Of a stretch of DNA of 64,000 nucleotides, positions 1 through 12,445 are shown piece after piece; position 1 is the first letter of the stretch; every line of letters begins with the position of its first letter. The translations under genes and the position numbers were made by a program. The notes under the pieces were generated by a model, which made no database searches, was not told where the DNA came from, and saw only the letters and a program-made list of their open reading frames with translations. This stretch comes from Botryotinia globosa (lineage: Eukaryota > Ascomycota > Leotiomycetes > Helotiales > Sclerotiniaceae): contig RCSZ01000004.1 in the NCBI GenBank assembly GCA_014898425.1, positions 434,001 through 498,000 of the forward strand. Reading direction: 5' to 3'.

Positions 1-255
1 GGGCTGAAAACTACAACGCTGAGTATCTCACCACCGAGAGAAACGAGTATTACGATTGCCACTGCGCCTGCGCTGACGTCTGCGCCGGTAGCGACGAGCA
101 CGAGCGCAGCAGGGAATGTTTGTTTAGGGGTGGGAGGAGATGGGAAGATTACTAGTATGAGTAGTTGTGTGGGTGGTGCGACGGAGACGGAGACGGAGAC
201 GGTAAGTGTGAGTGTGACGGTTACGGCGAGAGAGACGGTTACGGTTAGGGGGTAG
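1..255 (+). CDS. 3' end of a Thr/Ser/Val-rich protein (partial)
   Basis: An open frame runs from the first base of the window to a TAG stop at 253-255, giving 84 C-terminal residues. The composition is rich in Thr, Ser, Ala and Val. It includes a short Thr-Glu run encoded by tandem GAGACG units near 181-200, and it ends in alternating Thr/Val residues. Such low-complexity tails are common in secreted or cell-wall-anchored fungal proteins, but no catalytic domain, membrane anchor or GPI signal is visible. The start and any domains lie outside the window, so function cannot be assigned. The only support is the open frame and the biased composition. It lies upstream of and tail-to-tail with the UstYa-like gene, so it could belong to the same cluster or be unrelated. 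Confidence 0.5.
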   Translation, partial: GLKTTTLSISPPRETSITIATAPALTSAPVATSTSAAGNVCLGVGGDGKITSMSSCVGGATETETETVSVSVTVTARETVTVRG

Positions 256-900: not shown

Positions 901-1960
901 TCATAGAATCTCCATCCCATCCTGTCCATCATCCTCATGATTATCAAACCACCTAAAGATCTCCTTCGCCTCATGCGTCATATGTCTAACCGGCTCATCT
1001 ACCGGTCTCCTCAACGCCCCAAATTTCTCCAACGGCACCGCAATCTCATCATGATACTTTAGTATCGTTTCAAAATCCCTACACTTGTGATTGATATTAA
1101 AATCCGGCACTGCATTTTCCTGCATATCCACCCAATAATGTCCATACGTATCCACATTTCCCTGACACATCAGATTCTGCAGCAGCGCATACACACAATG
1201 CGAAGCGTGGAGTTGATGGTATTTCCCCATTTTTTCGTCAGGGTAGTAGTATTCTACGTTCCAGTAGAGATGCATTCGTAGCCGGTTCAGACAGTGGATT
1301 TGATGGAAGACGTCAATGCGTCCGATGAAGGCGTCGGGGCCAAACCCGAAGGATTCGGGAAACTTCGCATATAGATCTGGATTTTTCCCTTGATTTACGA
1401 GGTCTTGTCGGGATAGGGGGATTGGATTTTGAGTCTCGATACGAGCCCATGCTGCGTCGACTTCTGGGGATGCAGATTGCCGATAGATGGATTCGTTTTC
1501 GCGTTCTAGGAAGGTGCCATTGAGTCGCCAGGTTGAGAGGGGAATGTCGATTGCGTCTAGAACTGGAGCTATGATGTTGTTAATGAGATGTTTTTTAATA
1601 ACACATGAGGTTTTTAATCTTACATTTCTCGGAGACTTGCTTCAACGCCCAATTCCGCTCTTTTCCACCAGGAACTTGCTTCCAATTAAGCATGGCCGCT
1701 ATGAACAAGTACAAAGACAGACAAAAGAAAAGACCATTTAGCCAACCCAGACACCTCACAAATGAATGATGCTTATGGCAGGTATCATTGTCTCTCTTTT
1801 CAGAACGTTCGAATGAATCATCGCCGACAGAAAAGCGGTTGAGAAGTCCATCTTCATCTTTATATTCGTTATCCGAGTTTACATGTGAGGGTTCCAATTC
1901 TGCATATGTGAAAGCTTTGTTGCGCTTGAATATTTGTAGCATACGTTGATGGAAACCCAT
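901..1960 (-). CDS. UstYa-like (DUF3328) oxidase, RiPP/cyclopeptide type
   Basis: Two exons, 1960-1624 and 1568-901, are joined across a 55-nt intron (GTAAGA donor, ATAG acceptor) and give 334 aa. The family layout is complete. There is a cytosolic N-terminus, one membrane segment at about residues 74-92, and then the conserved 'SPVLDAIDIPLSTWRLNGTF' block formed across the splice. The two family HxxHC motifs follow: HQIHC at 201-205 and HASHC at 233-237. UstYa proteins are thought to be copper-type oxidases that install ether or C-C bridges on Tyr/Phe side chains in dikaritin peptides such as ustiloxin; that role is family knowledge. The gene is divergent from the repeat precursor at 4093, which fits a tailoring role for that peptide. 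Known clusters often carry a UstYa/UstYb pair. Only one copy is seen here, so a partner might lie left of the window. Confidence 0.9.
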
Positions 1961-4092
1961 GCTGAAGAGCGGAGAGGTTGGAGATGGGAGAAGTGAGAAG
2001 TGTAATGCGGATATGAGAGGTAAATGATAGAGTAGCTGTTTTCAAACGGAATGGGAACAGGTATATTGTAAGTCGTACAGCTAATGGGTATGATATAACA
2101 TCATAAACCAGGACTCGTGTTGCTTGCTTTTTAGAACACCAGTGGGTATGTGGATTGACAGGACACACTTCCAATTTTCGATATTTCTGGCAAGCTTATC
2201 ATCAGTTTGTTTGACATTAGGATTCACGTTTTGATTATTCCATTTTTAATCAACGATTATAGCAATTCTCGAGATAAATAATTTGATATATCAAGAAATA
2301 ATCACAAGTCCATTTTAGCAGTGCCCCAACACTCAACCCCCAGCATTCGATTATCTCAGCACGTTTCACATACCCGTCATAAGAGAAGTCCACCCTCCTC
2401 TCTTTCAGCCAGGAAGGAACAAGCCACATACTGCACAGTTATCTAGATCCAACCGATCCACGAATATGCAAGCCAACACATGTAGACAGTAACATGCACG
2501 ACATCTGTGATCTCATGATGGAAGTTTCGGCTAATTCTTCCCGTTCGCGTGGCAAACTTTGTGTTTCTCAGTTGGTGGTACAGAATGCATTTTGTACTTT
2601 GGCTGGATGAGAAGAAACGGTGTGGATATGCATGTACCAGCAGATTACAATGTTATTCCTTGTATTCATTATTATCTTGCAAAGTGTGGATAAAGCTTCC
2701 GAGTACACAATTACGCGGGTTTGACGACTTGAGATATTTTGGACCCGAACTTCGCATACGGAAGCAACTGTAATAGATCAGCAGCAGATAACAAACGTCA
2801 GATCATCATTATCCTAGCTACCTGCTCGCTAGATATGAAATCTACATCATTTGTAATTCAGAGATAGATATCTGAGGGGCATCGCTATTCGTAAGGATCA
2901 TATTCCCTACAGGTAATAAACGGGTCGGCCACAGATGAAAAGTATGTAAGTATACATAGCGATAGTAGTACCATTTACATCATAATCGATTTAATCTACT
3001 CTCGGTCAAACAATGATAATCGTGTAAACACTATCTTGGCTCCTGGATATACCTGAAAGGCTTGTAATGAAGTCTCTTGCCCAAAACTCTTGAAGTTTAT
3101 AACAGCTACACATTAAGCATCGATTCTAGGCACATCGAATCTCCCAACAAAATCCCAAGTCAGATCAGCGTATGTCCCTCCTGTCGTGGTGATGAAGAGT
3201 GCCTCTTCGCCCCTATTCCAACCAACTCTGCTTACTCCCCGCGTGATACTCGCTTGCACACCCACACGTTGTCGATCAATTTCCCCATTCTCCCGTGTCA
3301 CTCTTGCTTCTCGATATGTAACTTAAATCAAATCAATTCCATTCTCGTGAGTGTGTGAAGTCACTCACACACGCAGATATATGTCTAAAAACGACGTATA
3401 ACCCGATACTTGCACGAATCACTTCAGCAAACACGAACCAATGACTTGGTGATGAAGAAACAATACATTGAGGCATTTTCTTATCTCTGCTTCGCCACAG
3501 TTTTCGTCGCAGCGGAGAGTTTTGAACAGTCTCATGATAGCCTGTTTTGACATCCTTGTAGTGTTTTCGACAAATCTCGAGTTGCCGATGTACTTCGAAT
3601 CGATACTGGAATCTAATTCACAACCTGGTACATCTTTCTGATTTCTCGAATCGGGGTTCAGTTTGAATTTGCTTGCTGAATACATGATCCGATAGACTAC
3701 ACCACACGTTGTTGCAAGTTACGTCGGTTATGCATATAATTGTATGTTTGAGAATGTATCACGACACTGTTCATTGCGGGATAATCTTATCTTCTATGAA
3801 TGAACGAAAAGAATAGATCGGCGGCAAGATAACAGTTAGTTACAGCTCTTGAAGCATGTTACTCTACAGAATAATCATGTACAGAACTTTCGGATCTCCC
3901 GGTCGGCTTGCAGGTAGATCAAAAATATTCGCGCATTTTCTTTCATTTGGAAGTCAAAGATATCTATATAAACAGTCCACAACCAGAAATCTAACCTTAT
4001 TTTTCTCAGCCATCTAATCCATAGATTATTCCAACCAAACTCCAACAACCTCATCCCAGAAGTCCCAATACCCCACAGACACTTCTCCAAAA
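1961..4092. promoter_or_regulatory. Divergent promoter region of the UstYa gene and RiPP precursor
   Basis: About 2.1 kb separates the two divergent start codons and no convincing gene was found in it. A TATA-like TATATAAA lies at 3965-3972, about 120 nt upstream of the precursor ATG, and is the best core-promoter candidate. Divergent transcription from one region would allow co-regulation of precursor and oxidase, but that is an inference from layout. No specific transcription-factor site is claimed. Confidence 0.45.
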
Positions 4093-5203
4093 ATGGTTCG
4101 AATGACCGCAATCTTGGCTACGGCCATTCTCAGCCTCGCATATGCTGCACCTCTGAGTCCTGTTCAAGGTCTACTATATCCTCCCTGAGAACAAAAGAAA
4201 TCGTTACTAACTGTAAGTAGAAGAAGTGAAAGCACGAGGTGTGTTGGATGCTACGTATGCTCAGTTGGATTGGTTTATGGCTAAACGTGATCCAGAGCTA
4301 TCTTATGTGAATAGCCGCGCAGCGGAATTGAGCTATGTGGTATGTTTTGTAAAGATATTGTGTGGTATGAAGCTCATGAGTGTAGAATTCGAAGCGTGAG
4401 CCGGAGTTGAGCTATGTCAATTCTAAGCGCGAGCCAGAGCTCAGCTATGTGGTTTGTTTCACAGGAGATATTCTTTTAGCATCCAGCTCACACAAACATA
4501 GAACTCGAAGAGAGAACCAGAACTTAGCTATGTCAACTCCAAGCGTGAGCCAGAGCTCAGCTATGTGGTTTGTTTCACAGAAATATTCTTTTAGCATCCA
4601 GCTCACACAAACATAGAACTCGAAGAGAGAACCAGAACTTAGCTACGTCAACTCCAAGCGTGAGCCAGAGCTTAGTTACGTGGTTGGTTTGGCACTCCCC
4701 ATTTTCGAAAGCACCCTATTGACAGGTTTCTAGAACTCCAAGCGCGAGCCCGAATTGAGCTACGTCAACTCCAAAAGAGAACCCGAGCTCAGCTATGTCA
4801 ACTCCAAACGAGAGCCTGAATTGAGCTACGTTGTACGTCCCGCACCTCCCCCCTCCTTCCCCTTCACCATACCCCATGCCATACACTAACCTCCTCTCCC
4901 CAGAACTCCAAACGCGAGCCAGAACTCAGCTATGTCAATTCTAAACGAGAGCCCGAATTGAGCTACGTCAACTCCAAAAGAGAACCCGAGCTCAGCTATG
5001 TCAACTCCAAACGAGAACCTGAGCTTAGCTACGTCGTACGTTCCATTCCATTCCATTCATTCTCCACAACTCCTCGCCATCCAACCCCAATCCCAATCCC
5101 AACCCCCAAATACGAACCCCAAATACTAACCTCCTCTCTCCAGAACTCCAAACGCGAGCCAGAATTGAGCTACGTCAACAGCCGCCACACACACAAGGAG
5201 TAA
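4093..5203 (+). CDS. Kex2-processed tandem-repeat RiPP precursor (dikaritin-like)
   Basis: Eight exons: 4093-4168, 4221-4339, 4386-4451, 4502-4567, 4617-4682, 4734-4832, 4904-5035 and 5144-5203. They total 684 nt, or 227 aa, with frame kept throughout. Residues 1-18 form a signal peptide (MVRMTAILATAILSLAYA). A short leader follows, with the first Lys-Arg at 47-48. The first unit is degenerate (DPELSYV then NSRAAELSYV). Fourteen exact copies of the 11-residue unit NSKREPELSYV come next, then a short NSRHTHKE tail. Every copy has KR, the Kex2 site, so secretory cleavage would release many EPELSYVNS peptides, each with one Tyr. Codons differ between copies while the amino acids do not, which argues for selection on the protein. 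Signal peptide, KR-bounded repeats and a neighbouring UstYa gene are the hallmarks of ustiloxin/phomopsin/asperipin-type precursors. A pheromone-like or other Kex2-processed repeat protein is the main alternative. The first intron ends in a tandem AAGTAG acceptor, and both choices stay in frame. Confidence 0.85.
4278..5182 (+). repeat. 16-copy ELSYV-encoding repeat, interrupted by introns
   Basis: A 33-nt coding unit is repeated in tandem across exons 2-8 of the precursor. Six introns separate groups of 2, 2, 2, 2, 3, 4 and 1 units. Each of these introns is phase 0 and sits at the same codon boundary, after the Val of SYV and before the Asn codon. The introns at 4452-4501 and 4568-4616 are almost identical in sequence. 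The last two (4833-4903 and 5036-5143) share the same 3' end around ACTAACCTCCTCT. This shows that exon and intron blocks were duplicated together. Confidence 0.9.
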
Positions 5204-6743
5204 AATTCCCCATCTCCATCTCCATTCCCGGATCTTGGTTTCCATATCGAAGATATTTTCCTCTTGATTACCGGCTATGATATGAATGAAGAGAAGGAAA
5301 GGGGAGAATATATTCATGTATTCATGTGCGCGCGCGAGAGAAAGAACCAGACAGAAACAGAACCGAAACATGCAATCCAAATCTGCAATCCAAATCTGCA
5401 ATCGAAATTGAAACCATCAACACCCATCCATCCATCCACCTACACCTATACATATCCAACTATCCACACTTCCAAATATGTTCTTGCTTCCATTTCCATT
5501 TCCCTCATCCCTTCACTTAATTCAAACACTCTATTTTTCCAATCCAAGGCTCTCAAATTTCCAATTTCCAATTCCAATTTCCTTACATACAGAATAAATA
5601 AATAAATAAATAAATAAAAACTTCCTACCGATTCCCATATTTCATATATTTCATTCCCCTGATATAAGATATCAAGATCCACCAGATCTCACATTAAATC
5701 AACGTGTATTATGTATGCTATCCTTCCTTCCTTCCTTATAGAGAAAGTTGAATCTCCAGATTTTTCACTCATTCATTAATGATTATTATCTCCATCCATC
5801 CATCCATCCATCCTTCCTTCCTTCCTTCCTTCCTTCCTTCCTTCCTTCCTTCCTTCCTTCCTTCCTTCCTTCCAACATTCCAACATTCCCTTCCTACACA
5901 AAAGAATTCTTCACACCCAATTTACCCAGCGAACTTTAACCTCAACCTCATTCCACAAACATTCCCACATCCATTTAATTCCACAAATGCCCTCCTCTGC
6001 CTGTTCCCCCTCCCCCCTAAATCCCTCGTTTCTCGCTTCTCCAACTCTTCACACTCATTTCTTCCCCACACCCATCTCGTCTCGTCTCGTCTCATTTCGC
6101 TTCGTCTCCTTGCTATCCCATCCCACTCTTTCCCATTCCATCCCATATAGAGCACAGCAAAAGCAGATACGAAACAATAACGAATCATACAACCAAGTAC
6201 CTCCAGGGCTAGGTATAGTGACAAACAAAACGTACAATTGACCAACTTTGATCAATATCTTCTCTACATCTTGAAAGATTCTATGATCCAACTACTTTAT
6301 CATTCAAATCATAAATCATACTATTCAATCAAATCATTCAAGTATTCATCATGCCACTTGTTGCAATTCAAATGGATTTTCATTCTCATTTCTCATGCTT
6401 CGCTTCTCATCTCTTTTGGAAAACAAAAGTTGATGACTAATTACAATTGATTAAGTACCCTTTGGTGAGTTTCATGTGTTTTCTTCGTCAAAGGTTGAAG
6501 AAATTACAAGCCAACTCTTCCATTCCCATCTTCATTACTACTTTCATGAATAACGCCTATCCTTCCCCTATAATTTAATGGACAGAAATGTTTGAACGCC
6601 CAGTCTAATGCATTAAAATGATCATAACCTTACTGCCGTAACTTTGCCCCTAGTATGCGGAGATTGGCGTTCCGATAATAAAAAGATGGTGAGAAGGTAG
6701 TGTGAAGATTGATGAAAAATTTCGAACAGAGATATTAAGATGA
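5204..6743. other. Intergenic with simple repeats, no gene seen
   Basis: This interval lies between the 3' end of the precursor and the 3' end of ERG5. It holds pyrimidine-rich low-complexity DNA, an AATA run near 5594-5618 and the TCCA/TTCC array listed separately. Open frames here are Ser/Pro/Phe-rich translations of the repeats and are not credible genes. Confidence 0.6.
5791..5872. repeat. (TCCA)n/(TTCC)n microsatellite
   Basis: A short TCCA tetranucleotide run passes directly into about 15 TTCC units. It is a pure simple repeat in non-coding DNA, probably length-variable between strains. Confidence 0.95.
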
Positions 6744-8572
6744 TTAAGGTCTCTTTGTAAAGGTCAATGGACAATCATCCTGTAATTTGTGTGAGTAATG
6801 ATCAAGAGCCATTCAATTTGAATATGTACTAACCATAGGGAAAATTGTAGCAAAGACCTTAATCTCTTCTGATTTTGGAGTTGGATGATGAACCCAGTCA
6901 AGTTCCATCGATGCCTTTCCAATCATAAGAGCAAGGTTCATTTGGGCATATTCTTGTCCCAGACAATAATGAGCACCAGTTCCAAAGACCAAATAGTTCT
7001 TAGCACCCTTTACTTCCGCGTCACCGGAGAAATAACGTTCAGGATCGAATTCGTCAGGTCGGTCATAGACATCAGGATCGCGTAAAGCTGGGTATGTTGT
7101 TGGCACAATCATGGCTCCTATTTTTTTTAGAGATTAGAATCGGATTTTCGTTTCTGTATCAGCTTGACATACCTTTGGGAACAGTGTAATCTGGAGTGAT
7201 TGGGAATGCTTTCTTGGCAACATATGGAACCATGAGAACAGGAGGGCGCCATCTCAATAACTCTCTAACCACGGCACGAGTATATTTCATGCTTTCCATC
7301 ATGTCCATGTTTGGTCTAACTCGTTTATCACCACCACGAACGCGTAAGTTCTCCTCACGGACCTTATCCAAGACCTCAGGGCGTTGGGCCATAACTTGGA
7401 ATAACCAGGTGGCGGCACTACTAGTAGCATCTTGGGAAGCGAACAAGAAGGTAAAGACAGTTTGAGCAATTTCGAAGTCGGTGAACTCGCGGAGTAATGG
7501 CGTTGGCTTGGTCATTCCTTTGGTTGAGAGACCCTTTTCTTCTGCCTCGCGCCAGGCAGCGGACTCGAGTTGAGATTTGATCCATCCATCCATAATACAA
7601 GAAACTTCACCACCGGCAGCCATGCGAACCTTACTCTTTGCGGCACATTTGGAAAATTCCTCAAGAACCATATCAGCAGCAATCTTTCCGTACCAGGACT
7701 TGGTATATGGAAGAATGATTGGGAAGTTGACCAATTCCAAGGCAGCAGTGATGTTGTAGTAATCGTCGGCAATCTTCTTGATAGCTTCGTCTGAGATGTA
7801 GAAACCAACAAATGTACGACAGGAAACGGCGCACAACAATTCTCTGAATTCGGACATGAATGGAACGGGTTTTCCTCCAGCTTCCTCGGTAACCTTGGCG
7901 AATCTTTCGTTGTATTGATTATAGACGTCGTCTTGTCCTGGGAGATAGCAATCGAGAGCTTTGCGAGTGAATAGTCCATTGAGACCCTTTCGGAAATCAA
8001 CGTGAGCCTTTCCGTCAAGGAAAACCCAGTTGGTCTCGCCCAATAATTTATGTGCTGAATCGACTACACATGGTTTAACGTATGCTGGGGAGTTGAAAAC
8101 TTTTCTAGCCATATCACGAGTAGAAGCAATAACAACAAATCTGATAGAGATTAGTGCCTGATTTTGCAGTGGCAGATAATAGTGTTGACCTACTTGTGGA
8201 AAACAGATACGCAACTGAGGTCACCGCTTGCCCATTTTGCTTGATATTCGTGAAATTTTGGATTGACAGATTGTAAAAATGGACCGATAAAGGGGGCTTT
8301 CCATGCTGGACCGATGATCGAACCTTTTTGCCAGATATAGCTACCTGTAGAATTGTCAGTGAGTGGTGCAATTGGTTCATCGACGCGTTGAGAAGTTTCT
8401 TACATTGATCATAAGCTACCATCAGGCAAAGAAGTGTAAGCACAATCTGCCATGCGCTGACTTCTGCCAGCTTGGCTAGAAACCCATTGAGTTGAGAATG
8501 CCCAATAATCTGAGCAAATTTCGCATCTGCCACAGGTGAGGCATAAGTGATATTGTGTACCACGTCCGCCAT
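6744..8572 (-). CDS. ERG5: C-22 sterol desaturase, cytochrome P450 CYP61
   Basis: Five exons, 8572-8404, 8344-8194, 8140-7173, 7117-6834 and 6779-6744, total 1608 nt and encode 535 aa, the usual CYP61 length. An N-terminal membrane segment falls near residues 35-55 ([14 protein letters not shown]). The oxygen-binding helix reads FASQDATSS and the ExxR motif lies in RELLRWRPP. The heme loop is [10 protein letters not shown] with the ligand Cys near residue 481. The last exon is only 36 nt and supplies the conserved DDC-LTF ending. The enzyme introduces the C22-C23 double bond late in ergosterol synthesis at the ER, using NADPH-P450 reductase. Although it is a P450 beside the RiPP locus, the sequence is that of the housekeeping sterol enzyme, so it is not taken as a cluster member. 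Confidence 0.96.
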
Positions 8573-8731
8573 GGTTTGTTCGTTGTGGTATGTATCTGTA
8601 CCAAACGTTGATGTGAAGAACAATCTTTCAAGAATATCAATCTGACGGGTTGACTATAAAGTCTTGGGTCAGAAGATATCTGCAACTTGGTACGAACGAT
8701 AGGACAAGTTGTTGAATAAAAAGTATTAGGA

Positions 8732-8806
8732 AGGAAGGAAGGAAGGAAGGAAGGGAAGATTTTGGGTGGGAGGATGGGAGGATGGGAGGATGGGAGGATG
8801 GGAAAG
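8732..8806. repeat. (GGAA)n and (GGGAGGAT)n simple repeats
   Basis: A tetranucleotide GGAA run is followed by about four copies of the octamer GGGAGGAT. Both lie in the ERG5 5' flank, 160-230 nt upstream of the start codon. Confidence 0.85.
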
Positions 8807-9796
8807 TCGGGAATTATTATTGAGTTATGAATCTGGTGTGATTCTGAACACCAGAATCTAACCGTAACCGTAACGAACAATTGGGGAAGTTACGGAATTT
8901 GATTAAGTAATCCACTCGAGCTACCCGAATGACGACCATACCCCGTACCCAATCATCTGTTGATCAAATTTTATAAGTTTGGTTAGATTGGTAAGATTAC
9001 ATATTACTACTCGGTAACTACACAATCGGGTGAATAGTCTAATCTAACGGGGAGTAATGAGTTATTGAGTAGCCTCGTAGAGTCGTAGCTGATTTGCTAT
9101 TGGATTATACTAGGATTAGATTTCATTAAAGACATTCGAGAGACCTTTGCAACAAGGGTTAATCCGCCCGGCAAGAAAGGATAGGAAGGATAGGAAGGAT
9201 AGATTGGATAGAATGGAAAGAAAATTCAAACATGAACATCAGTGGAGTCACTGGAGTGAAATGCGAAGAGCTAATCATACTAGGGAGGAACTAGAAGTAA
9301 AAAAAAAAGGTCATCATCTATGATCTATTGACTATTAGTGGCGCGATATGTGGTGGATTATTCTGGTCTGGATCATTACAAAGTTGTACTGTACACGGTA
9401 TACGAAAGTACGCTCATACAAGAAAGAGCACAGTTGTCAGTGTCAGTTGTTAGTTGTTAGTAAAAGACAATTAGAATCGACTCAAAAAGGAGGAGGAGTG
9501 TAGCGAATGCGCGTGTTGTACCGGTACCTACCTAGGTAGGTAGTGATTAGTTATTAGTTACACATTCCACTTCATGTCTGTACCGGTACTCGGTAATCTT
9601 CTCTATATATCAGAAAGAGGAGGGCAAAAGAGTGAATTCAATCGACGATAGTATCACATCCTATCAAAAAGACGTCATTATCCTTTCAATTCATTTATTT
9701 GTGTGTCTAGGTACCTAGGTAGATAACGGAAGCAAACTATACTATAGGGCTAGATAGTAGTTCAAGGGTTCATGGGTTGATTGATAGGTTGATAGG

Positions 9797-9870
9797 TTTA
9801 TAGATTTATAGATTTATAGATTTATAGATTTATAGATTTATAGATTTATAGATTCATAGATTCATAGGTT
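9797..9870. repeat. (TATAGATT)n 8-nt tandem repeat
   Basis: About seven near-perfect copies of the octamer TATAGATT decay to CATAGATT at the right edge. The array lies in non-coding DNA. Confidence 0.85.
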
Positions 9871-12445
9871 CATTGTCATTGTGGTGCTGACCCTTTGCTG
9901 ACCTGATGTATCGTTTCTGAGCCCAATATCGACATCATCATATCATCCGTCCACCACCAGTAGAAATTAAAGATGTAATAAGACTACATTACATGCCTAG
10001 ATCCACACGAGAGGATCCTTGTCAAAATAATATTATCAGTCACTCACTCATACTTGTATTACCAACCACTTTCCATCTCTTCCGAAACTTCCATGCTAAT
10101 AAAAGTTGAAGGAAGAAGAGGATTTGCAGTAGATTCCATGTTGGAACGATATACTCGCTCGTGTAGTATCAGATATTATATATTGCTCCGATTTGTTGAA
10201 ATGCTACCTACTAACCATACTACAACAGACTTTGATGGCTAATGGCTAATGGCTAACGACTAACGCCTAGATGAAGCCACAATCAGATTCTACACATCAA
10301 AAGCAAATCTAGGTAGTAAATCAAGATACTCACATCCAATCCCCATCTGCTCACAACGACGAAGAGACTCATTGAACCAGATAGTCATGATTCATGAATC
10401 TCCATTTCTGACTAAATCACGAGATCCATCTATACTCGGATCCTCCAATCTGTATTCCGTACCTACCTACTACCTAGTGAACAAAACTGGTGGCTGGTTG
10501 TAAGGTGCAACCAACTCAACAAACACAAGTCTTGGCAAACATGCATCCCCTATTGAGAATATATCTTCATCCCCCGACAAGGCTCTCCAAAAAGCACCAC
10601 AAGCAACTTCAGTGAACACCAGGACCTCCCGCTCAAAACACACATAACAATCGGTAGCTACATACGGGAAATACCAAACGATATCACGCCAGATTCCTCC
10701 ATCAAATAAATCAAATCAAACAAAACCCATGCGAGCCATCTCCAAACTCGAAACTCCACAAAAATCCACCCAAAACCTAATCTGAATCAATTTCTCAGAT
10801 CACCTCATAAATAAAACATGTGCTAGCTCAGTCCACCGAGGAGTCCAACGATGTTATTTAATCGAATGCTTCTTTATACACGTATATATATTTCATACTT
10901 ACATAGATACCGGCCGGAATATACTATAACGATAACAATGGGGAAGTACATATCTATCTCGAGTCTGTCCTGCCTGTCTTGTCGAGCTTGTATAAAATTC
11001 TAGTCAGCAGCATTGACCAACAAATTTCACAACCACCTCAAATTTTCAACACTCAGTACCAGAATTCCACTCATATCATGTCTAATTCAAGAAACCAAAC
11101 CCCCATTTTCATCCGACTTGAATGACCTCCAAATAGTAAACTATCTACCTATCAGGAAAAGTAGAATTTCAATACATCCAATCCTCCTCACACAATCCAT
11201 TCTCTTCACCATGATAATATCCAGCCCCGCCCCTCAATCGCGAAAATCAACAAATCGAGCTAGAATTTCACATGAAGGAATATTTAGCCGAGCTATGCTA
11301 CGGAGTATTTTCCATGGAAATGGGCTTACTTTCTCGGAAGAGGAGGGGGTGAATCCTTCATCATGAATAGAATCTGTTCTATTGATCACGACTCACCAGT
11401 CAATTATCTCTTTAGTGGGAGATTCTAGACTTGGTACTTACGGGATGCGGGTAACCTTGGTTTACTCTCATAAGTTTTGAAGTCCATGGGTGGGTGGGTG
11501 TTTGGTCATTACTTCGATTTTTTGGGACATGCCTCCATATGGATATTTCAGTACGAGATATGTACTAATAGCATGCCCCTGTCTTTTCACTTCTCTGCTT
11601 TTGATGTTCTTACCCTTTCTGCCCTCTCTGCTTCGCTTTGGTTTTGTCTGTTACTTTCTATCTAGCTCAAGAAATCTGGCACGTAGGAGCTAAATTCCCT
11701 CTCCTCAATCATGAGACCCTCCGTTTTCTTCTTCATATATTTTGAATCTAGGGTTGAGAAGATCAAAAACATTGGTATATGTACCTAGATAGTGAATAAA
11801 CATTCATCATCACCATGGATACGTTAAAATCCCTCCCCATACCTACTCACATATCCAACAATTCACCATACACGAGTCCAATAACCCAATAATTTCCCCC
11901 TCTGAAATTTTTTGTCAGATGGCATGAGTCAACTATCTATTACCTATCATCATATTTCAGAACCTCTTTTACGCTTAGTTCTGTGAATTCTTATTATCTA
12001 TCTACTATCTATATATTGCCCAAACCATCTTCTCGAATTAATAAGAAAATTAACATATGGAATCTGTATTCGAATTGTTATTTAGCTTTTCTATTTTATA
12101 ACTGAATTCGTGTATAGAATGAGGTATTGATTATTCCTTAATACAAGAACAACTATATACTACAAATACCGATGGAAATTCTTTAATCTAAGAATAACTT
12201 CCTAAACCTCATTTCATACTGCCTATTCAGTATTATCAAATATAATAACCATATTCACATTCCTCTATACACTCAATCCAGACTCAATATCTCAATCTAT
12301 AATCAGACAGACTTATAATGCTTATGCTTACTGCCTCACTATGGAATTAGATATTACATGTATATATGAACATTTGAAACTCTATCTTTATACTTCTTAA
12401 AGACTCCAACCTCGATTCTCTAAACTCTCTAACCCCTCTATATAT

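What the first reader, a model, noticed from the sequence alone, without database searches (positions are those of the whole stretch)
4093..5203. Candidate new dikaritin-type RiPP: Kex2-bounded ELSYVNS core in 16 copies
Seen: a signal peptide, then ELSYV 16 times, 14 of them in an exact 11-residue unit bounded by Lys-Arg, in a 227-residue precursor spread over eight exons. Copies differ in synonymous codons (AAGCGT, AAGCGC, AAGAGA, AAACGA, AAAAGA for KR), so the peptide is held constant by selection or homogenised at protein level. Known: ustiloxin, phomopsin, asperipin and epichloecyclin precursors share this design. Inference: the product is a Tyr-containing cyclic peptide based on (EP)ELSYVNS, whose core I do not recognise among described dikaritins.
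Basis: partly seen in the sequence, partly recalled or inferred. Interest (0 to 1): 0.92.

Follow-up and report, generated by a model that had tools for sequence, protein, structure and literature searches.

The report
Botrytis repeat-peptide precursor beside UstYa oxidase
A grey-mould-type fungus carries a gene for a secreted protein that looks built to be cut into many copies of one short tyrosine-containing peptide, and next to it lies the kind of enzyme that ties such peptides into rings in other fungi; this makes it a credible new candidate of an already known class of fungal cyclic peptides.

Summary
Window 4093-5203 splices (predicted, no RNA evidence) into eight exons and 227 residues, with 16 ELSYV and 14 exact KREPELSYVNS units. 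All 21 minimum DNA changes between the 14 units are synonymous. A divergent gene at 1960-901 encodes a UstYa/DUF3328 oxidase (PF11807, E=1.2e-45) with both HXXHC motifs, 2.1 kb away. Its best relatives are Botrytis (92% B. aclada). No tyrosinase match lies on this contig, so the layout resembles asperipin-2a more than ustiloxin. All 16 cores read X-P or X-A before ELSYVNS, the STE13 dipeptide, so I predict a seven-residue core. The canonical alpha-pheromone gene is elsewhere. Cyclisation, expression and activity are not shown. Pfam PF16058 'Mucin-like' already matches the repeat, KEP/DUF3328 pairs in Botrytis were surveyed (PMC7329392), and 20 RiPP-like regions are tabled for B. cinerea (PMC13290904); whether this one is listed I could not check. 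Verdict: new member of a known kind.

The parts
4093..5203 (+). Kex2-type repeat precursor gene, eight predicted exons, 227 aa, stop codon included
   Evidence: Spliced and translated; no second copy among the matches; Pfam PF16058 'Mucin-like' E=2.7e-45
4093..4146 (+). Predicted signal peptide MVRMTAILATAILSLAYA
   Evidence: Read by eye from the translation; no signal-peptide program was run
4221..4339 (+). Exon 2: propeptide, first Kex2 site (AKR), then the two odd units DPELSYVNS-R and AAELSYV
4386..5035 (+). Exons 3-7 of the array (4386-4451, 4502-4567, 4617-4682, 4734-4832, 4904-5035): 66, 66, 66, 99 and 132 nt, each a whole number of 33-nt units, phase 0 on both sides
   Evidence: 6 of 7 introns fall at the same place, ELSYV|NS; introns 3 and 4 are 48/50 identical, introns 6 and 7 60/108
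5144..5203 (+). Exon 8: last unit and C-terminal tail RHTHKE
901..1960 (-). UstYa/DUF3328 oxidase gene, two predicted exons (1960-1624, 1568-901), 334 aa, one hydrophobic segment by eye (type II membrane protein), HQIHC and HASHC motifs
   Evidence: Gene model; PF11807 156.5 bits and 156.9 bits; motif conservation over 46 sequences; 92% to B. aclada
1961..4092 (.). 2.1-kb intergenic region between the two divergent start codons; TATA-like TATATA near 3965
   Evidence: promoter role is inference
6816..8623 (-). Cytochrome P450 gene, the next identified gene on the right; probably not part of the system
   Evidence: PF00067

Best explanation
The locus is a two-gene RiPP unit of the dikaritin (ust-RiPS) kind. 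The precursor enters the secretory pathway through its signal peptide; Kex2 cuts after each Lys-Arg; a Kex1-type carboxypeptidase removes the basic pair; a STE13-type dipeptidyl aminopeptidase removes the X-Pro or X-Ala dipeptide, leaving ELSYVNS in up to 16 copies; and the membrane-bound UstYa-type oxidase encoded next door oxidatively cross-links the core, most likely through its only aromatic residue, Tyr4. Shown from sequence: precursor design, constant protein sequence with variable codons, adjacent UstYa with both motifs, genome-encoded Kex2-type and STE13-type proteases. Inferred: transcription, order of steps, cyclisation, the bond formed, and secretion of the product. The biological role is unknown; secreted activity toward plant or competitor is the likeliest guess.
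For: Signal peptide (by eye), Kex2 sites and identical cores. UstYa neighbour, PF11807 E=1.2e-45, both HXXHC motifs; among 46 aligned sequences (the query and 45 of the 113 relatives found) the first motif's H, H and C are invariant and the second's are conserved in at least 90%. With about 30 UstYa genes in 45.7 Mb, a random gene start would lie that close to one with probability about 0.0035 (rough). In a survey of 7878 KEPs, DUF3328 genes peak at the position next to the KEP gene, and 65.6% of repeats of DUF3328-accompanied KEPs hold Tyr against 38.2% of the others (PMC7329392 passages). X-P/X-A before the core in 16 of 16, and an 893-aa dipeptidyl aminopeptidase frame in the genome. A Kex2-type P domain at one locus (2 adjacent matches).
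Against: No RNA, proteome or metabolite data. No tyrosinase: 0 of 13 matches are on contig C4. No transporter or methyltransferase gene was noticed nearby, but they were not searched for by family. The STE13 dipeptide is typical of linear alpha-type pheromone precursors (PMC9769878). UstYa genes also serve non-RiPP pathways (PMC12048977). The precursor was not found among predicted proteins, so its conservation in sister species could not be tested. UstYa genes in this genome often have no evident precursor nearby: of 10 other UstYa places scanned, 1 showed one.
Confidence: 0.7

Rival explanations
1. A linear secreted signalling peptide: the array is processed like an alpha-factor precursor by Kex2, Kex1 and STE13, and the peptide acts unmodified, the UstYa gene serving something else.
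For: X-P or X-A dipeptide before 16 of 16 cores; the same motif marks alpha-type precursors (PMC9769878); about 78% of surveyed KEP genes have no DUF3328 gene nearby (22.3% have one; PMC7329392).
Against: The canonical alpha-pheromone gene is a different locus, C1:2780284-2781255, with 14 WCGRPGQPC copies, and the core here has neither Cys nor Trp. UstYa is the divergent neighbour.
Confidence: 0.2
2. A structural or surface-active repeat peptide, as described for Rep1 of Ustilago maydis (amyloid-like fibrils; PMC9769878 passage).
For: Kex2-released repetitive peptides are known to do this; many identical copies fit a bulk product.
Against: ELSYVNS is short and polar, and the neighbour is an oxidase of the RiPP kind.
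Confidence: 0.05
3. A mucin-like structural protein, as the Pfam name PF16058 would suggest, or an unexpressed relic.
For: PF16058 E=2.7e-45.
Against: The match is to an 11-residue periodic unit in which the dibasic pair, the Pro and the Ser-Tyr weigh most; the name says nothing about processing. Repeat peptides also cross Pfam cut-offs by chance: a shuffled form of the unit crossed that of an unrelated viral family. Purely synonymous change argues against a relic.
Confidence: 0.05

Closest known systems
Asperipin-2a cluster of Aspergillus flavus (aprA, aprY, aprT, aprR)
   Same: Kex2-type repeat precursor with Tyr, a single UstYa-type gene, and a four-gene list without tyrosinase (PMC6514808 and PMC12048977 passages).
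   Different: Core FYYTGY has three Tyr and a bicyclic structure; here one Tyr in ELSYVNS. A transporter and an isoflavone-reductase gene belong to that cluster; here no transporter was noticed and an NmrA-type fragment lies about 9 kb beyond the UstYa gene, membership untested.
Ustiloxin and phomopsin clusters
   Same: Kex2-processed repeat precursor plus DUF3328 proteins.
   Different: Those need a tyrosinase, have two and five DUF3328 genes and YxIx cores (PMC7329392); here one DUF3328 gene, no tyrosinase match on the contig, and a core without Ile.
Epichloecyclins (GigA)
   Same: Multicore precursor, probably Kex2-processed, with Tyr internal to the core; cyclic peptides linked through Tyr (PMC9233826).
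   Different: GigA repeats are imperfect and yield several products; here 14 units are identical. The ring partner there is given as Ile, absent here.
Ascomycete alpha-pheromone precursors
   Same: Signal peptide, Kex2 sites and STE13-type X-P/X-A dipeptides.
   Different: Core unrelated to WCGRPGQPC, which this genome encodes elsewhere; adjacent UstYa, absent from 98.6% of 216 putative fungal pheromone KEPs (PMC7329392).
KEP types with DUF3328 neighbours that include Botrytis (G-3 and G-5/P-1 of PMC7329392)
   Same: Same genus, same architecture; G-5/P-1 contains Tyr.
   Different: G-3 repeats are marked by a His-His motif and G-5/P-1 by Tyr with several Asp; ELSYVNS has neither His nor Asp. 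Whether this very precursor is in their Table S2 could not be checked.

Membership tests
Dikaritin / ust-RiPS | Signal peptide plus repeated cores between Kex2 sites | tested here: met
   signal peptide by eye only
Dikaritin / ust-RiPS | UstYa/DUF3328 gene with two HXXHC motifs near the precursor | tested here: met
   2.1 kb, divergent
Dikaritin / ust-RiPS | Tyr (or other aromatic) in the core | tested here: met
   ELSYVNS, 16 of 16
Dikaritin / ust-RiPS | Cyclic, side-chain cross-linked product | not testable with these tools
   needs LC-MS/MS and NMR
Phomopsin/ustiloxin subtype | Tyrosinase gene in the cluster | tested here: not met
   0 of 13 tyrosinase matches on contig C4
Phomopsin/ustiloxin subtype | YxIx core and more than one DUF3328 gene | tested here: not met
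   core ELSYVNS; one PF11807 match in the window, the other on C4 is 2.2 Mb away
Asperipin subtype | Single UstYa-type gene without tyrosinase | tested here: met
Asperipin subtype | Transporter and isoflavone-reductase genes in the cluster | tested here: inconclusive
   NmrA-like fragment PF05368 upstream; no transporter noticed, not searched for by family
Ascomycete alpha-pheromone | Kex2 sites followed by STE13 X-P/X-A dipeptides | tested here: met
   X-P/X-A before 16 of 16 cores; 15 of these follow Lys-Arg, one follows a single Arg
Ascomycete alpha-pheromone | Core of the WCxxPGxxC kind in this class of fungi | tested here: not met
   core differs; pheromone gene found at C1:2780284-2781255
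Pfam PF16058 Mucin-like | Profile score above the curated cut-off | tested here: met
   153.1 bits against 28.7; says nothing about function

The most novel reading that the evidence does not exclude
A new dikaritin subfamily in which an alpha-factor-style maturation line (Kex2, Kex1, STE13) is coupled to a single UstYa oxidase to make one uniform, Tyr-cross-linked ELSYVNS heptapeptide; its gene grows by gain of whole in-frame exons, and its repeat has been hidden in Pfam under the name 'Mucin-like'. DUF3328 genes beside 17 of 76 KEPs related to putative Basidiomycota pheromones with STE13 repeats were noted before (PMC7329392), so the coupling would not be the first sighting, but its product would be new.
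Probability: 0.35. Interest if true: 0.65.

Novelty: new member of a known kind. Interest (0 to 1): 0.5.

Why it matters
RiPP-like regions are predicted in Botrytis (20 in one B. cinerea genome, none matched to a known RiPP in the table passages seen; PMC13290904), but in the passages and listings seen here I met no named Botrytis RiPP product. A two-gene unit with one invariant core is a very simple test bed for what a lone UstYa oxidase does to a peptide with a single Tyr: one predicted mass pair (811.38 to 809.37) decides it. It would also link alpha-factor-style N-terminal trimming with dikaritin modification.

Tried and rejected
Homologues of the precursor: two protein searches gave none (7759 candidates, none at E<=0.001, residues 1-80: 437 candidates, none at E<=10). 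This may reflect missing gene models or bias filters and is not evidence of absence. Rejected: canonical alpha-pheromone, phomopsin/ustiloxin subtype, mucin reading of PF16058. The only paper in the held library that names PF16058 is a table in an algal RNA-virus study.

Literature searches. Passages seen: PMC7329392, PMC6339444, PMC6941272, PMC12048977, PMC9233826, PMC9769878, PMC6514808, PMC7594059, PMC13290904; of all other papers only search listings. Not held: 10.1093/gbe/evaa218, PMC7533671, PMC4822579.

Full report
What is there. The sequence and a spliced translation confirm the finding's counts: 227 aa, eight predicted exons, 16 ELSYV, 14 exact KREPELSYVNS units. Tandem Repeats Finder independently reports the 33-bp unit and a 115-bp exon-plus-intron unit. 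All 7 genome matches of the first 98 residues lie inside this gene.

Constraint. The 14 units are 13 different DNA sequences and one protein sequence. At least 21 substitutions separate them, all synonymous; 11 of 15 variable sites are third codon positions. Under no constraint the chance is about 4e-15, or 2e-12 with a transition bias (independence assumed). So the repeat is very probably translated and its protein is held constant. Part of the array is also young: introns 3 and 4 are identical at 48 of 50 positions.

Gene architecture. Six of seven introns interrupt the repeat at the same point, ELSYV|NS, in phase 0, and exons 3 to 7 are 66, 66, 66, 99 and 132 nt, whole multiples of 33. Copies can therefore be gained or lost as whole exons without breaking the frame or the Kex2 register. 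The main text of the Umemura survey has neither 'intron' nor 'exon'; I saw no comparison elsewhere, but did not search for it beyond.

The core. Each of the 16 ELSYVNS copies is preceded by X-P or X-A: EP 14 times, DP once, AA once. X-P/X-A after a Kex2 site, X often Asp or Glu, is the STE13 recognition motif (PMC9769878, passages). The genome holds an 893-aa dipeptidyl aminopeptidase frame with one apparent N-terminal membrane segment, read by eye, and a Kex2-type P domain. Kex1 was not searched for. I therefore narrow the mature core from (EP)ELSYVNS to ELSYVNS; the AA copy follows a single Arg, not Lys-Arg, so it may not be freed the same way.

The partner gene. On the minus strand at 1960-901 lies a two-exon gene of 334 aa. 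Its second-exon part scores 156.5 bits to PF11807 UstYa (cut-off 25), and the genome search puts it second of 37 matches. It has one hydrophobic segment by eye and both HXXHC motifs, suggested as a mark of RiPP-related DUF3328 proteins (PMC12048977 passage). Among 46 aligned sequences (the query and 45 of 113 relatives) the first motif's H, H and C are invariant and the second's are conserved in at least 90%. It is divergent from the precursor, with 2.1 kb between start codons. About 30 UstYa genes exist in the genome, so such closeness by chance is about 0.0035 per gene (a rough estimate).

Organism. The best UstYa relatives are Botrytis aclada (92%), B. cinerea BcDW1 (90%) and other Botrytis entries at 77-94% over all or part of the length. 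Outside Botrytis, relatives at about 42-63% in the alignment occur in Alternaria, Neodothiora, Penicillium, Pseudogymnoascus, Aspergillus and others, and weaker ones further out. I take the genome to be a Botrytis species and did not name it further. Whether those relatives also sit beside an ELSYV-like precursor could not be tested.

Neighbourhood. To the right come a P450 and genes of housekeeping look (Vps52, TBC, RSE1/DDB1-type, IF-2). Upstream are a Ser/Thr-rich open frame of 718 aa, an FAD_binding_4 oxidoreductase fragment, a Zn2Cys6 factor and an NmrA-like fragment. None was tied to the precursor by any test. Of 13 tyrosinase matches none is on this contig.

Is it a pheromone? A pattern search for WCxxPGxxC gave 16 hits, 14 of them clustered at C1:2780284-2781255 as WCGRPGQPC. 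I take that to be the alpha-pheromone gene; the locus here is something else. In the Umemura survey, 98.6% of 216 putative fungal pheromone KEPs had no DUF3328 gene nearby (PMC7329392). A non-mating linear signal remains possible.

Pfam PF16058. The precursor scores 153.1 bits to 'Mucin-like'. The real unit repeated eight times scores 83.9 bits; of three same-composition shuffled repeats one scores 15.9 and two are not listed, nor is a full scramble. In a letter-change scan the dibasic pair, the Pro and the Ser-Tyr weigh most. Against over-reading: all 20 changed forms still pass the cut-off (43.7-89.1 bits), two of them above the real unit, so the profile was not built on exactly this unit; and one shuffled repeat crossed the cut-off of an unrelated family. 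So Pfam already models an 11-residue unit like this one under a name that hides it, but I could not see its seed. This lowers the claim that the core is unknown.

How common is this in the genome? In 10 of the 21 other UstYa places (20 kb each) a scan for repeated six-residue words found one further candidate: seven GFFNN cores, six after KR and one after PR, about 2 kb from UstYa matches on contig C13, without Tyr in the core. Repeated words at four more places (C16, C9, C11, C1) carried no dibasic site in the words listed and were set aside; only those of C11 were looked at in translation. A B. cinerea genome paper tables 20 'fungal-RiPP-like' regions, without precursors named in the passages seen (PMC13290904).

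Judgement. As a member of the dikaritin kind it meets the three features testable here (precursor design, UstYa with two motifs, aromatic core); the defining chemistry is untested. It is not of the ustiloxin/phomopsin subtype. Probability that the adjacent UstYa modifies this peptide: about 0.7. The finding is solid and easily tested, but of a kind that surveys show to be frequent (22% of 7878 KEPs have a DUF3328 neighbour, PMC7329392), so I score interest 0.5.

Noticed in passing
L033 minus strand about 6700-6950 (G000 C13:74728-74962): A second Kex2-type repeat precursor with seven GFFNN cores (six after KR, one after PR), no Tyr in the core, about 2 kb from UstYa matches at C13:76892-78392.
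   Followed up: partly
G000 C1:2780284-2781255: What looks like the genome's alpha-pheromone gene, 14 WCGRPGQPC copies.
   Followed up: partly
window 1-252 and L011 about 8100-10000, + strand: A 718-residue Ser/Thr-rich open frame reaching into the window's left edge, next to the UstYa gene; function not tested.
   Followed up: no
L011 about 1865-5957: NmrA-like frame (-, 1865-2107, interrupted upstream by a stop or an unseen intron), Zn2Cys6 factor (-, 4038-4154) and FAD_binding_4 oxidoreductase fragment (+, 5109-5957), 5 to 9 kb from the UstYa gene; possible cluster genes, unproven.
   Followed up: partly
G000, 37 PF11807 matches: Roughly 30 UstYa-type genes in 22 separate places of one Botrytis genome; 9 of the 10 other places scanned had no evident Kex2 repeat precursor.
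   Followed up: partly
L010, about 17.4-19.1 kb left of the window: AT-rich reverse-transcriptase-like remnants, read by eye as a degraded retroelement.
   Followed up: no
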